NCBI RefSeq assembly: GCF_037975215.1
Contig: NZ_CP150239.1
Location: 2,766,001-2,830,000 of the forward strand
Reading direction: 5' to 3'
DNA: 64,000 bases
From: Solibacillus sp. FSL R5-0449
GTDB taxonomy: Bacteria > Bacillota > Bacilli > Bacillales_A > Planococcaceae
A program made the position numbers and the translations under genes. Below are positions 59,849-64,000 of the stretch, in pieces (position 1 is the first letter of the stretch; each line of letters opens with the position of its first letter). Below the pieces are notes generated by a model, which was given only the letters and a program-made list of their open reading frames with translations, was not told where the DNA came from and made no database searches.

Positions 59849-60607
59849 CTAATATATCATCTTTCCCTCTACTCTAGTACTACAACTGTTCAATTCACAC
59901 TCAAAAATTAATGGTGAGTGATCACTAACGCTCAGATATTCTCCAATTTCACCAATACTAAAATTCCTAATGTACGGTACAAATTCTTTAGAAACTAAAC
60001 AGTAATCTATATGGAAAGGTTTTTCTAAATTTTGATGATGATAGTAAGTATATTCGCTCTCCATACCATACTCCTCTTGATTAATATGGTGATAGCAACT
60101 AGTTAAATTATAGCTATTAAATAAGTCAATAATTTTATTATATCCACTCTTACCACCTAAACCTGAATAACTTGAAGTTACTCTCTTTTCAAGATTAAAA
60201 TCACCCATAATAATTACTGGGCTATTCTTAATAAGATTTTCATATTCAATAAATGCATTATATAAAACTTTTCCATAAGAAGCTGAAGGCATTCTCTTAG
60301 TCCAAACGGCAATAAGTGTAAAATTTTCTCTTCCACTCACTTTAATAGGTATAATCCATTCATACTTTATATCTTCTACTAACAATTCCAGTTTATAGTC
60401 TTTTGAAAAGGTAAACACACCTACTCCTAATCCTCTTACCTTCCCTTCCCCTATCCATAAACAATCTTCAAATTGAAAATCTTTTTCTGATTTTTGTGGA
60501 TTTTGTACTTCTTGAAGTATGGCAATATCAGGTGCTAAATTAGATATTCTTCTAATTTTTTCAATATTATTTAAGCCATTCTTAACATTCCATGAAATAA
60601 TTTTCAT
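59849..60607 (-). CDS. Endonuclease/exonuclease/phosphatase-fold enzyme, 252 aa
   Basis: EEP motifs in order: ISWNVKNG (N7), ILQEVQNP (E about 33), VIIMGDFNLE (D-x-N), HIDYCLVS and VSDHSPLIF. This is the fold of exonuclease III and related Mg-dependent phosphodiesterases; the sequence is compact (no extra domain), and the substrate is open. Length slightly below ExoA. It lies beside a defence-type operon but is separated from it by a terminator, so it is probably an independent unit. Confidence 0.85.
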   Translation of the reverse strand: MKIISWNVKNGLNNIEKIRRISNLAPDIAILQEVQNPQKSEKDFQFEDCLWIGEGKVRGLGVGVFTFSKDYKLELLVEDIKYEWIIPIKVSGRENFTLIAVWTKRMPSASYGKVLYNAFIEYENLIKNSPVIIMGDFNLEKRVTSSYSGLGGKSGYNKIIDLFNSYNLTSCYHHINQEEYGMESEYTYYHHQNLEKPFHIDYCLVSKEFVPYIRNFSIGEIGEYLSVSDHSPLIFECELNSCSTRVEGKMIY

Positions 60608-60694: not shown

Positions 60695-60722
60695 AAACGC
60701 AATATCAAATGATATTGCGTTT
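60695..60722. terminator. Terminator of the Dnd-associated-like operon
   Basis: AAACGCAATATC / GATATTGCGTTT stem with T-tract on the minus strand, 24 bases after the stop at 60747. Confidence 0.85.
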
Positions 60723-60746: not shown

Positions 60747-61202
60747 TCAAAACGGTACATCTTTTAATGTTGCTAAAATATAACTCATTAAATCAACTTG
60801 GTAATTTTTGTATTTCACATCAAGCCTATTGCCGTCCCATTTTTCACGAAATACTTCTTCAATTAGTATTTCCATTCCACCCTCAGCATAGTTTTCTAGA
60901 ACTTTACGAGCTTCGGCATGGAATTCAGAATCATTGAAACGCTCTAAGTCTTTACCCTTATTTTCATCATTTAAAATCAGTGTATATATTAAATTACGCT
61001 CATCTAATGAGAAATAATTTGAACGGAATTCACGGCTTCTTTCAACTACTGGCGATAGTTTACCAGACTTTGCGCCAATTGCTGCGCAAATCAAAAATAA
61101 GGAATGATACTTCATATCATATGTGTTCGAGAAAAATGTATAAATATGTTCATATTTTTTACTCGTGTACATTATAATTTGCTTATCACCTAAAAAGTCC
61201 AT
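60747..61202 (-). CDS. Dnd-system-associated protein 4-like, 151 aa
   Basis: The stretch YHSLFLICAAIGAKSGKLSP ... FRSNYFSLDERNLIYTLILN ... KVLENYAEGGMEILIEEVF recalls the family called dnd system-associated protein 4 (AAxxG..., then ENYANGGLEIL); match is from memory. Soluble, no enzyme motifs. GGGGGC lies 8 bases before the ATG, and the gene begins 3 bases after the ATPase stop. As last gene of the operon it probably works with that ATPase. Confidence 0.6.
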   Translation of the reverse strand: MDFLGDKQIIMYTSKKYEHIYTFFSNTYDMKYHSLFLICAAIGAKSGKLSPVVERSREFRSNYFSLDERNLIYTLILNDENKGKDLERFNDSEFHAEARKVLENYAEGGMEILIEEVFREKWDGNRLDVKYKNYQVDLMSYILATLKDVPF

Positions 61203-61205
61203 TAC

Positions 61206-63233
61206 TTATAGCCCCCTTGTAGTTAGAGCTGCGTGTAACTCTACTTGTTCAATTTCTGCATCCATCACATCTCGTTGTACAATTCGATAAAATTTACCCA
61301 ACTTATTATTGTCTTTAAATACGCGTTCTTCATTCACCGTTAACTCAGTATCAGTTAATAATAGAACCCATTGTGATGCTAATGTTGGAATATTAATAAT
61401 AAGCTGATCGCGGTTATTTGCACTTAAGCGGTTAAATGGTGAGTCCATAAATAGCGGGAAGTTAATTAATATATTATCGCCACTTGCAATTTGCGCGAGT
61501 GCCGTAATGAACGCTAACGCTACAATTTGGCGCTGACCTTGTGAAATATCTTGTGTAATATCAATATCATCGTGTCCGATAATCTCAATCTCAAACTTAT
61601 CATTAATGTTAATTTTTTGAATTAAATTAATATCTTTACGATCAATTAAGCGTTTGAAAATATCAGTTGTTAAGTCACTTAAATTGTATCGCATTGTCGA
61701 ACTGAATTCTTCCGTAATTTCTTTCACATTTTTACGAATTCTTTCGATATAGTCTAAAACCTTGGAATCAAAAGCAAGTGTTTGATTGTTTTTAAACATA
61801 TCGGAAAGCTCGACTTCAAGTCGCTCTAATTGTTTTTCAGCTTCATCAATAGCATCTTTGACACGAGCAATTTGAATACGAGTTAGACTTTCTTTTTCGC
61901 GTTGTGTTTCTAGTGCATTTTTAATTTCTTCTAAATGTACTTCAGCACCTGCTCTTGAACCAATTTCTTTTTCAACCATCTCAATATCTCGAGCAATCTC
62001 TTTACGCTCTATATCTTTTTCACGTATTTTACGGAGTAACTTAACCATCTCTTGCTCGGAAGTGTCATAAGTATTCTGCTTTTCCGTAATTAAGTTTTTA
62101 ATAGAACTTGAAATTGTGACAAGCTCGGAACGACGATAGTTTTCACGTAGTGATTGTACATATAACATATTTTCCTTATGTACGCTTAGATCATTATCAC
62201 AGCAAGCACAACGACTTTGTTTTAATGAAAGATCTAATACATCTGATGGAACTATACTACCTTGATCAATTGTCAACTGCTCTAAGTAATTTGTGACATT
62301 TGGGAATGTAGCGTTAAGTAATAGAAACGATGCTTCATTACGAAGCTTGCCAACTACTTGTCCTTTTAAGTCATCTAAATATTCTACTTTAGAAGCCAGA
62401 TTTTCACGTAATCCTTTTAACTGATCTTGTATACGGCGGATATCTTCATTTTGTGATAACTGAAGCTCATAATGGGTAATTAATTTCTTACATTCATTTT
62501 GTTCAATTAATAACTGTTGTTGAATCACTTTTTGTTGATCGATTTCAGACTTTTTCACTTCAATTTCTTTTTCTTTACTTTCGATATCTGTGTTTCCAGC
62601 GTTATCTATAATTTGCTTTTTTTCAGAGCGGTGTAAAGTTTCAATTATATTATGAGCTTCTTCTAAGTTGTTAATTTGTAAGAGCTTCGAAATAGCTGTC
62701 CGTACCTCTTTTTTTACTTCATCAGTCGTTTTCGCCAACGTGTCAATTTTTTCAGCGTCAAATAAGAAGAAGTCTTTAATTTCTTCATCTAAAATTTCAT
62801 TCATTTTTGCACGAACTGTAACTTCATTATCAAAAGTTTGGGCACCGTAATTTCCATTTTCATCAAACATAACTAACTTTACGTAATCAAAACGTTCTTC
62901 GATACGGTCACCACGTTTAATTCCTTTTAAAGCTCGCGTAATTTCGAATTTACGTCCTAAATGTTCAAACGTAACTGTTACAGAGGTTTCAACTGGTCGC
63001 TTTGAATCCTCTAATAAGCGGAAACTAGCTAAGTGTACAGGCTCTTTCGGGTTATCTTGCTGAATATGTGTACTTCCATATAATGCATACATTAACGCTC
63101 TAAAAAGACCGGTCTTCCCTTTACCATTCTCTCCGAAAACAATCGTAATATTTTTTTCACCTAATGCAAATTCAATTGTTTGCTTGCCCATGTATTGACG
63201 AAAGTTTTGGAGTTCCATTTTTAAAAGTATCAT
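61206..63233 (-). CDS. DndD-like SMC/Rad50-type ATPase, 675 aa
   Basis: Walker A GENGKGKT (34-41), the DndD-typical FFLFDAEKID (155-164), long coiled coils (195-285, 375-510) around a CxCC hook (C342, C344, C345) that could bind zinc, ABC signature SQGQRQIVAL (564-573) and Walker B LFMDSPF (594-600). DndD is the ATPase of phosphorothioate modification, but related ATPases occur in other defence operons. The start ATG lies 4 bases after the 54-aa gene's stop. All key motifs are intact. Confidence 0.88.
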   Translation of the reverse strand: MILLKMELQNFRQYMGKQTIEFALGEKNITIVFGENGKGKTGLFRALMYALYGSTHIQQDNPKEPVHLASFRLLEDSKRPVETSVTVTFEHLGRKFEITRALKGIKRGDRIEERFDYVKLVMFDENGNYGAQTFDNEVTVRAKMNEILDEEIKDFFLFDAEKIDTLAKTTDEVKKEVRTAISKLLQINNLEEAHNIIETLHRSEKKQIIDNAGNTDIESKEKEIEVKKSEIDQQKVIQQQLLIEQNECKKLITHYELQLSQNEDIRRIQDQLKGLRENLASKVEYLDDLKGQVVGKLRNEASFLLLNATFPNVTNYLEQLTIDQGSIVPSDVLDLSLKQSRCACCDNDLSVHKENMLYVQSLRENYRRSELVTISSSIKNLITEKQNTYDTSEQEMVKLLRKIREKDIERKEIARDIEMVEKEIGSRAGAEVHLEEIKNALETQREKESLTRIQIARVKDAIDEAEKQLERLEVELSDMFKNNQTLAFDSKVLDYIERIRKNVKEITEEFSSTMRYNLSDLTTDIFKRLIDRKDINLIQKININDKFEIEIIGHDDIDITQDISQGQRQIVALAFITALAQIASGDNILINFPLFMDSPFNRLSANNRDQLIINIPTLASQWVLLLTDTELTVNEERVFKDNNKLGKFYRIVQRDVMDAEIEQVELHAALTTRGL

Positions 63234-63237
63234 CGTT

Positions 63238-63402
63238 TCATTTCATCTCCTTTGCTACATGCTCTCGTATGTTAGTACGCAGCGCATTACGAACCTCATC
63301 CTTTTGTGTCACTTGCTCCACATCTTGTAATAATTTCATAAGAAATGAACGATTCGGTTCCTCTAAATCATTAATACGTTTCAATAACTCCGAATTAATC
63401 AT
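63238..63402 (-). CDS. Small helical protein inside the defence operon, 54 aa
   Basis: MINSELLKRINDLEEPNRSF then LMKLLQDVEQVTQKDEVRNA, entirely helical and charged, no membrane segment. Its ATG overlaps the helicase stop (TATGATTAA), and its stop is 4 bases before the ATPase start, so it is a true member of the operon. Likely an adaptor between helicase and ATPase. Family unknown. Confidence 0.7.
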   Translation of the reverse strand: MINSELLKRINDLEEPNRSFLMKLLQDVEQVTQKDEVRNALRTNIREHVAKEMK

Positions 63403-64000
63403 AATTTTCGTATTCCTCCTTCATTGCGTAATACACATCCCACGGTTTCATATCCATCAAATGGTTTAGGTTATATGGTGAAATGTACGGTAATATCGTA
63501 TTTTTTGCATGTGATGGCGTGATGGAGCTATTCGCAAATTCCGCAAAGCGAGGTAACTCTTTACGTGCCACAGATGTGAATGATGAATCATCAGTATCTT
63601 TTGGCAATACAATAAAATCGTAAATTTCTGCAAGCACTTTACCATCGTATGTTCGTAAAATTCTTCCTCGACGTTGAACGAATTCTCGAGGATTTGAGGT
63701 GCTAGATAAAAAATAAGCTGTCTTCGTACTCGGTACATCTACACCTTCATCTAAACATTTGATTGCTACTAAAATTTGAATATCACCTGCAGCAAAACAA
63801 TTTAAAATTTCTTTACGTTGCTTATTTGGTACTGTTGAATCAAACTTGTGAACCTTTAACCCAAGACTAGCTAACATACGTGTTATTTCATTTACTTGTC
63901 CATCTGCACAATATACAATCGAATGTGAGATGGTTTCAATACCCTTTTTTTCTAACAATTCTATTAAACGTGGAATTTTTTGTTCTGCTTTACTTAAAAT
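63395..64000 (-). CDS. SF2 DEAD/DEAH-type helicase, C-terminal part (runs off window)
   Basis: The visible 201 residues are a helicase C domain: IVYCADGQVNEITRMLA, motif V region ILVAIKCLDEGVDVPS, motif VI FVQRRGRILRT, and a C-terminal tail to YENYD. The open frame continues past base 64000, so start and Walker motifs are not visible. First visible gene of the four-gene minus-strand operon with overlapping or almost touching junctions. Confidence 0.9.
   Translation of the reverse strand: MLSKAEQKIPRLIELLEKKGIETISHSIVYCADGQVNEITRMLASLGLKVHKFDSTVPNKQRKEILNCFAAGDIQILVAIKCLDEGVDVPSTKTAYFLSSTSNPREFVQRRGRILRTYDGKVLAEIYDFIVLPKDTDDSSFTSVARKELPRFAEFANSSITPSHAKNTILPYISPYNLNHLMDMKPWDVYYAMKEEYENYD

What the first reader, a model, noticed from the sequence alone, without database searches (positions are those of the whole stretch)
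60747..64000. Compact defence-type operon: SF2 helicase, 54-aa protein, DndD-like ATPase, Dnd-associated-4-like protein
Four minus-strand genes with an 8-base overlap, a 4-base gap and a 3-base gap. The ATPase has the FFLFDAEKI motif of DndD and a CxCC hook. The last gene resembles dnd system-associated protein 4. Within the window there is no DndB, DndC or DndE. It is either the restriction/associated arm of a phosphorothioate system whose core lies beyond 64000, or an independent helicase-ATPase system. The conserved tiny gene between helicase and ATPase is a component I do not recognise from named systems.
Basis: partly seen in the sequence, partly recalled or inferred. Interest (0 to 1): 0.75.

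Follow-up and report, generated by a model that had tools for sequence, protein, structure and literature searches.

The report
PbeABCD with sigma-like fifth gene
The four genes are a known virus-defence cassette (PbeABCD) that normally relies on sulfur marks in the host DNA, but here the marking genes were not found and a large gene carrying a promoter-reading (sigma-factor-like) domain is joined to the cassette, which may explain how unmarked copies of this system could work.

Summary
The four genes are PbeABCD (CxC ATPase/DndE-type system): PLD-helicase PbeA, 54-aa PbeB (by position and size), ATPase PbeC, PbeD. Beyond 64000 there is no dnd core but a fifth gene, 3 nt upstream of pbeA: a ~1089-aa protein with a sigma-70 region 4 (-35-reading helix-turn-helix) and a long family-specific C-terminal half. 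The parts I read of the two main Pbe papers do not mention it. In 30 Bacilli genomes with PbeABCD, 0 of 11 with this gene have DndC or DUF4007 (SspB) genes; of 19 without it, 18 do, and the other has methylase-like genes upstream of pbeA. The C-terminal half occurred only beside pbeA (6 of 398 and 5 of 261 genomes). Six of eight residues invariant in 14 members lie in the sigma-4 helix-turn-helix. I read this as a PT-independent five-gene variant of PbeABCD, with the sigma-4 protein as recognition or sensing subunit; that role is inferred. The association rests on one or two evolutionary events, and on plasmids of Alphaproteobacteria and Arthrobacter other sigma-4 proteins coexist with dnd genes.

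The parts
60747..61202 (-). pbeD-like gene, 151 aa (DndE-cognate position; 'DNA phosphorothioation-associated protein 4'-like)
   Evidence: TIGR04062 34.7 bits, below its cut-off of 74.25; last gene of the cassette in relatives; profile-profile match to DndE, probability 68%
61206..63233 (-). pbeC: CxC-type ABC ATPase, 675 aa, Walker A GENGKGKT, FLFDAE, CACC hook, ISQGQRQ signature
   Evidence: PADLOC PbeC PDLC02730 4e-212; motifs
63238..63402 (-). pbeB-like small gene, 54 aa
   Evidence: position and size; 58-aa relative in Kurthia massiliensis, 86.6 bits; small ORFs of 54-71 aa at the same place in 12 of 13 sigma-type loci looked at, and a 72-aa one in the 13th, L056; no PADLOC or Pfam model and no NCBIfam model above cut-off
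63395..64000 (-). 3' part of pbeA (PLD nuclease + SF2 helicase, 679 aa in all; continues outside the window to equivalent position 65434). Next upstream, wholly outside the window (L002:7438-10707, equivalent 65438-68707, minus strand): the fifth gene, 1089 aa from a GTG or 1083 aa from the ATG at L002:10689, with sigma-70 region 4 at residues 428-471 and a family-specific C-terminal ~600 residues
   Evidence: pbeA; PADLOC PbeA PDLC02707 1.1e-240; PLDc_2, ResIII, Helicase_C; HxK..GSAN motif. Fifth gene: Pfam PF04545 41 bits; gap of 3 nt to pbeA; a relative in the same place in 13 further loci
60695..60722 (-). terminator-like hairpin just after pbeD (12-bp stem, T-rich tail)
   Evidence: 10 such sites found in 12.5 kb, 5.0 expected by chance

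Best explanation
The locus is a five-gene operon: a large sigma-4 protein followed by pbeA, pbeB, pbeC and pbeD. It is a variant of the PbeABCD anti-virus system that does without phosphorothioate DNA. Shown here: the gene order, the tight packing, the absence of DndC and DUF4007 (SspB) from the genome, the restriction of the family-specific half of the sigma-4 protein to pbeA loci in the genomes searched, and the conservation of its -35-type helix-turn-helix. Inferred: the sigma-4 protein is the recognition or sensing subunit. It docks on promoter-like (-35) DNA or on RNA polymerase and thereby supplies what PT marks supply in the DndCDEA-PbeABCD system, namely where and when the PbeC/PbeD scanner and the PbeA helicase-nuclease act. 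PbeA then translocates on, nicks or blocks the invader DNA.
For: Four-gene identity. Fifth gene 3 nt upstream; gap of -20 to +18 nt (longest-ORF starts) in 19 of 19 loci with a sigma-4 gene upstream of pbeA. Its C-terminal half (A3) is found, at E<=1e-10, in 6 of 398 class genomes and 5 of 261 order genomes, and every hit lies next to pbeA (positions compared). PT genes by DndC TIGR03183 or DUF4007/SspB PF13182: first sample 0 of 7 genomes with the gene against 12 of 12 without; second, later sample 0 of 4 against 6 of 7, the exception having two methylase-like genes upstream of pbeA with one small gene between. Of 8 invariant residues in 14 proteins, 6 are T445, T456, R457, E458, R461 and Q462 in the sigma-4 helix-turn-helix, which aligns with SigA. 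A crude methylase-motif scan (ORFs of 150 aa or more) of the stretch held around each of the 14 loci gives no hit in 8, hits that I judge not to be methylases in 3 (two inside the sigma protein itself, one short ORF) and likely methylases in 3 (L168, L187, L188).
Against: The trait sits on one or two branches of the PbeA tree (2 changes; one clade not rejected, p-AU 0.11), so the 11/19 contrast is not 30 independent observations and the independent-pairs test has no power. Five plasmid loci carry a sigma-4 gene upstream of pbeA together with dnd genes (L070, L071, L072, L081, L167), though without the C-terminal half. Five plasmid loci have neither PT genes, nor a hit to my methylase queries, nor a sigma-4 gene (L069, L073, L075, L166, L171); of these L073 does have an annotated adenine methylase nearby. 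Likely methylases lie near three loci of the variant, one of them (L188) directly upstream of the sigma gene, and this genome has a type I HsdM-like gene about 9.5 kb beyond the fifth gene. The relative in G426 is broken in several genes. In two members the sigma-4 match is under Pfam's cut-off (L056, L168). No activity is known.
Confidence: 0.6

Rival explanations
1. The sigma-4 protein is only a transcription regulator of the pbe operon, and PbeABCD uses some unlinked methylation mark for self-recognition.
For: It holds a DNA-binding domain typical of transcription; a type I RM methylase lies in the same region; likely methylases lie near three other loci of the variant and near some other PbeABCD loci.
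Against: About 1000 aa with ~600 residues conserved beyond the helix-turn-helix; co-translation-type spacing directly before pbeA in all 14 loci; found only with pbeA in 398 and 261 genomes; no likely methylase in the stretch held around 11 of 14 such loci (8 with no motif hit, 3 with hits that I discounted).
Confidence: 0.2
2. A solitary, inactive PbeABCD: an acquired cassette that lost its PT partner, as Xiong et al. suggest for solitary copies.
For: Published PbeABCD fails without PT (PMC6459918); no DndC or DUF4007 here; one relative, G426, is visibly decayed.
Against: The long genes are open here and in 12 of the other 13 members of the variant (three of them with a short PbeA); the same five-gene order persists in several families of Bacilli and in L. 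plantarum plasmids.
Confidence: 0.12
3. The ordinary PT-restriction arm whose modification genes sit elsewhere in the genome.
For: Family membership of the four genes. One PAPS-reductase-like match of 21.2 bits, just under the cut-off of 22.5, in a 134-aa open frame.
Against: DndC and DUF4007 searches of the single-contig genome (99.97% complete) find nothing. Positive controls work: 12 of 12 genomes of the other class score with one of the two families, and a DndC and an SspD reach the PAPS-reductase cut-off (28.0 and 22.5 bits). A 134-aa frame is short beside these (446 aa, itself cut, and 277 aa).
Confidence: 0.05

Closest known systems
DndCDEA-PbeABCD (Haloterrigena jeotgali; PMC6459918)
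   Same: Same four genes in the same order; PLD-ResIII-helicase, small protein, coiled-coil ABC ATPase, ~150-aa last gene.
   Different: No DndC or SspB found in the genome; an extra large sigma-4 gene heads the operon.
CxC ABC-ATPase/DndE-anchored systems (PMC10853773)
   Same: PbeC with a CxC hook, PbeD as DndE cognate, small protein, HKD-SF2 protein; can occur without DndD systems, as that paper says.
   Different: Sections 16 and 17 and the passages found for sigma, HTH and RNA polymerase name methylases, MTaX1 and various nucleases, not a sigma-4 protein, as partners; the one sigma-related domain shown is inside some DndH proteins.
MZA system protein MzaA (NCBIfam NF041931)
   Same: A defence-linked protein with a sigma-70 region 4 helix-turn-helix.
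   Different: Match only over the helix-turn-helix (41.2 bits against a cut-off of 800).
Housekeeping sigma factors (SigA/RpoD region 4)
   Same: The TRERxRQIE recognition helix aligns with SigA.
   Different: No sigma region 2 or 3 by Pfam; a large C-terminal half with no Pfam match above cut-off.

Membership tests
PbeABCD cassette | Four genes A-B-C-D in order, one strand, closely packed | tested here: met
PbeABCD cassette | PbeA with PLD, ResIII and helicase C-terminal domains | tested here: met
   PADLOC PbeA 1e-240; TIGR04095 448.7 bits is below its cut-off of 600
PbeABCD cassette | PbeC: DndD-like ABC ATPase with CxC hook | tested here: met
   PADLOC PbeC 4e-212; CACC at residue 342; TIGR03185 DndD 136 bits, below its cut-off of 246
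PbeABCD cassette | PbeB: small protein between A and C | tested here: met
   by place and size, with small ORFs at the same place in related loci; not by sequence: no PADLOC or Pfam model matches it, and its one NCBIfam match is far below cut-off
PbeABCD cassette | PbeD: DndE cognate | tested here: inconclusive
   TIGR04062 below cut-off; hhalign with DndE 68% probability, control 0%; structure model too poor to use
PT-based DndCDEA-PbeABCD defence | PT-modification genes (DndC or Ssp type) in the genome | tested here: not met
   one search gives one sub-threshold PAPS-reductase match only
PT-based DndCDEA-PbeABCD defence | Protects against viruses | not testable with these tools
   needs a plaque assay
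Sigma-70 factor (for the fifth protein) | Regions 2 and 4 of sigma-70 | tested here: not met
   only region 4 found
MzaA (for the fifth protein) | Full-length match to the MzaA model above cut-off | tested here: not met
   41.2 bits against 800, helix-turn-helix only

The most novel reading that the evidence does not exclude
PbeABCD has been re-tooled in Bacilli into an immune system without epigenetic self-marks: a promoter-mimicking protein (sigma region 4, in some relatives after HhH/alpha-CTD-like modules) replaces the PT mark and lets the system judge DNA by its promoters or by the state of the host RNA polymerase.
Probability: 0.3. Interest if true: 0.82.

Novelty: new variant of a known kind. 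Interest (0 to 1): 0.55.

Why it matters
Xiong et al. found that 320 of 553 PbeAC pairs lack dndCD, and 165 lack any modification component nearby. They could only guess that these were inactive or had other partners (PMC6459918). A conserved fifth gene that, in the Bacilli genomes examined, stands where PT modification is missing gives a concrete candidate partner and turns the question into a gene-deletion experiment. If the sigma-4 part works as its sequence suggests, it would be a way to tell self from non-self through transcription signals rather than DNA marks.

Tried and rejected
Rejected: 'new four-gene system with an unrecognised tiny gene' (the genes fit PbeABCD). Rejected: 'dnd core beyond 64000'. 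Rejected: fifth protein = MzaA or a true sigma factor. Rejected: housekeeping locus (PbeA profile in 24 of 398 class genomes at E<=1e-60, 18 of them true PbeA, and in 8 of 261 order genomes at E<=1e-100; none of the 15 other genomes of the same genus).

Led nowhere: the genome-contig scan with PbeC gave one locus. The viral scan with PbeC gave none. The viral scan with the sigma proteins kept 80 loci, all matching only around the helix-turn-helix. Phage records gave no match to the fifth protein. Both structure models are unusable: the sigma relative as a single sequence, mean pLDDT 35, and PbeD with 2 rows, mean pLDDT 41.5; so no fold search was run. The HhH/alpha-CTD reading of the Bacilli sigma proteins is weak (hhalign 61%, 5 against 4 sequences); the Pfam alpha-CTD domain is above cut-off only in relatives L077 and L070. 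The promoter scan is no better than chance (58 found, 62.8 expected).

Rows dropped: of 24 genomes, six (G300, G378, G344, G087, G366, G242) matched only up to profile position 403 of 672, inside open frames of 849-1368 aa, and were not counted as PbeA. Five of 29 plasmid hits (H16, H17, H20, H21, H22, all L. plantarum) were not fetched. L078 was left out of the tree for its long branch. The short sigma-4 protein of L179 reads by eye like an ordinary full sigma factor and was not counted as the variant; L077's sigma-4 protein lies downstream of the cassette and was not counted as upstream.
Full report
OBSERVATION. The window is G000:C1:2766001-2830000 of a one-contig, 3.58-Mb genome, so the sequence beyond 64000 could be read. 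The helicase gene is complete at 679 aa, with an N-terminal PLD domain followed by ResIII and Helicase_C. A T-tailed hairpin follows pbeD at once (window 60695-60722), and a stem-loop lies at L002:11140-11115, just after the gene upstream of the operon (terminator-like sites 10 found, 5.0 expected by chance). Together with the spacing this suggests one five-gene unit; no transcript data exist here.

WHAT THE FOUR GENES ARE. PADLOC gives PbeA (1e-240) and PbeC (4e-212); the 54-aa and 151-aa proteins have no PADLOC hit. NCBIfam matches the helicase to 'DNA phosphorothioation system restriction enzyme' (448.7 bits, under the cut-off of 600), the ATPase to DndD (136, under 246) and the 151-aa protein to dnd_assoc_4 (34.7, under 74.25). 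PbeABCD was described in an archaeon as PLD-ResIII-helicase / 66 aa / ATPase / 152 aa, all four needed for full protection, and protection dependent on PT (PMC6459918; passages and section 8 read). PMC10853773 (passages and sections 16 and 17 read) identifies PbeB as a fast-evolving small protein, PbeC as a CxC ABC ATPase and PbeD as the DndE cognate. So the tiny gene has a name. Database records of relatives even call it 'CxC ATPase DNA modification system associated small protein'.

THE FIFTH GENE. Three nt upstream of pbeA lies a 1089-aa ORF (GTG start; the ATG at L002:10689 gives 1083 aa and matches the start of the relative, by eye). Its only Pfam domain above cut-off is sigma-70 region 4 (residues 428-471, 41 bits). 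No PADLOC or NCBIfam model covers the rest to any extent. A full-length relative (50% identity) heads the same five-gene order in Kurthia massiliensis. Directly upstream of pbeA, sigma-4 proteins stand in 19 of 54 PbeA loci examined: own, L024, 17 class genomes, 24 of 29 plasmid hits and 11 later genomes. In 14 of the 19 the protein carries the C-terminal region of the window's family (A3; eight of these were used to build it, and L056, L168 and L178 score only 54-61 bits). The gap to pbeA is -20 to +18 nt in 19 of 19, by longest-ORF starts. Searched as a profile at E<=1e-10, A3 occurs in 6 of 398 class genomes and 5 of 261 order genomes (the sets overlap), and every hit is next to pbeA.

PT MODULES. 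First sample, 19 genomes: DndC above cut-off in 9 and DUF4007 (SspB) in 3. These 12 are exactly the 12 genomes without the fifth gene; the 7 with it have neither. I then drew a second sample of 11 new genomes: PT genes in 6, none with the fifth gene; of the 5 without PT genes, 4 have the fifth gene and the other (G743) has two methylase-like genes upstream of pbeA with one small gene between. In all, 0 of 11 against 18 of 19; Fisher p = 2e-7 without correction for kinship. One of the 11 (G840) is only 81% complete, and one of the 19 (G587) has 7% contamination. Kinship matters: on a PbeA tree of 54 rows the variant is a 12-row clade plus one pair (2 changes), and a single clade is not rejected (p-AU 0.11, 53 rows). 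So this is a consistent property of one or two lineages, not many independent swaps.

RESULTS AGAINST. On plasmids, L070 (Arthrobacter), L071 and L072 (Rhodobacterales), L081 and L167 (Rhizobium) have a sigma-4 gene upstream of pbeA and dnd genes nearby. These sigma proteins lack A3, so they may be a different kind, but they show that a sigma-4 partner and PT can coexist. Five plasmid loci have none of the partners I searched for (L069, L073, L075, L166, L171), though L073 has an annotated adenine methylase nearby. For plasmids only the fetched stretch was checked, not the host chromosome. Methylation as a mark is not excluded: likely methylases lie near three of the 14 loci of the variant (L168, L187, L188), and in the window's genome an HsdM-like gene lies about 9.5 kb beyond the fifth gene.

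HOW IT MAY WORK. The 14 proteins of the variant are diverse (50% identity to Kurthia's; 16-25% in the other pairs measured). Eight residues are invariant; six of them are T445, T456, R457, E458, R461 and Q462 in the sigma-4 helix-turn-helix, aligned with the SigA helix. That these sigma residues contact the -35 hexamer is recalled from published sigma-4/DNA structures, not tested here. Relatives L077 and L070, not of the A3 kind, also carry an RNA polymerase alpha-CTD domain (41.2 and 25.8 bits, cut-off 23.8), and L054 has five tandem ~75-residue HhH-like modules before sigma-4; for the window's own protein that module is only weakly supported. My inference: the protein recognises promoter-like DNA or RNA polymerase and directs PbeC/PbeD and PbeA, taking the role that PT marks have elsewhere. 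Three Lactiplantibacillus members have a PbeA without the PLD motif (455-458 aa), so DNA cutting by that domain cannot be required in all of them.

LITERATURE. Searches for PbeABCD (10 papers), PbeA+PbeC, CxC/ABC ATPase/sigma factor/phosphorothioate, phosphorothioation/sigma-70 region/antiphage/helicase (32 papers, 12 listed), sigma factor-like/defense system (none) and SspABCD+PbeABCD listed no title or abstract that describes this fifth gene. Only open-access full text was searched, and of the papers listed I read only parts of PMC6459918, PMC10853773, PMC11662687, PMC12707154 and PMC12839542. The 2020 ABC-ATPase survey (10.1093/nar/gkaa726, recalled) is not held, so prior mention there cannot be excluded.

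VERDICT. Four genes: already known. Operon as a whole: a new variant of a known kind. Interest 0.55, because it gives solitary PbeABCD loci of Bacilli a specific, testable partner.

Noticed in passing
L055, L057, L058, L179, L185 (Bacilli chromosomes); L074, L078 (plasmids): Ssp-type PT-modification genes (SspB- and SspC-like) stand beside PbeABCD, an Ssp-Pbe pairing not mentioned in the Pbe passages I read.
   Followed up: partly
L002:11153-13751 (window-equivalent 69153-71751): An XRE regulator followed by a 682-aa PLD protein with weak matches to ATPases such as AriA and no close family: a possible two-gene defence candidate.
   Followed up: no
L002:13926-14717 (window-equivalent 71926-72717): PADLOC PDC-S02 (Mrr-type) protein split over two ORFs, apparently a broken gene.
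   Followed up: no
L003:247-11384 and L002:19057-19998: Type I restriction genes (HsdM-, HsdR- and HsdS-like, by eye), a 462-aa reverse-transcriptase-like protein and a 279-aa GIY-YIG-like protein: a likely defence island.
   Followed up: no
L002:15462-17927 and L188:1951-4565: Similar-looking DnaD-like and DnaB-like replication genes (by eye) lie near the same five-gene variant in two genomes of different genera: perhaps one kind of mobile element carries it.
   Followed up: no
L054:4991-8953: The sigma-4 protein of this locus has five tandem ~75-residue HhH-like modules before the helix-turn-helix.
   Followed up: partly
L060, L062, L063, L064, L068, L080, L168, L171: PbeA proteins of 455-517 aa without the PLD nuclease motif, helicase only; against cutting by PbeA as a universal step.
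   Followed up: partly
window 59849-60607: A 252-aa endonuclease/exonuclease/phosphatase-family protein lies beyond the hairpin after pbeD; no relative of it was seen in the 18 loci (for the family).
   Followed up: partly
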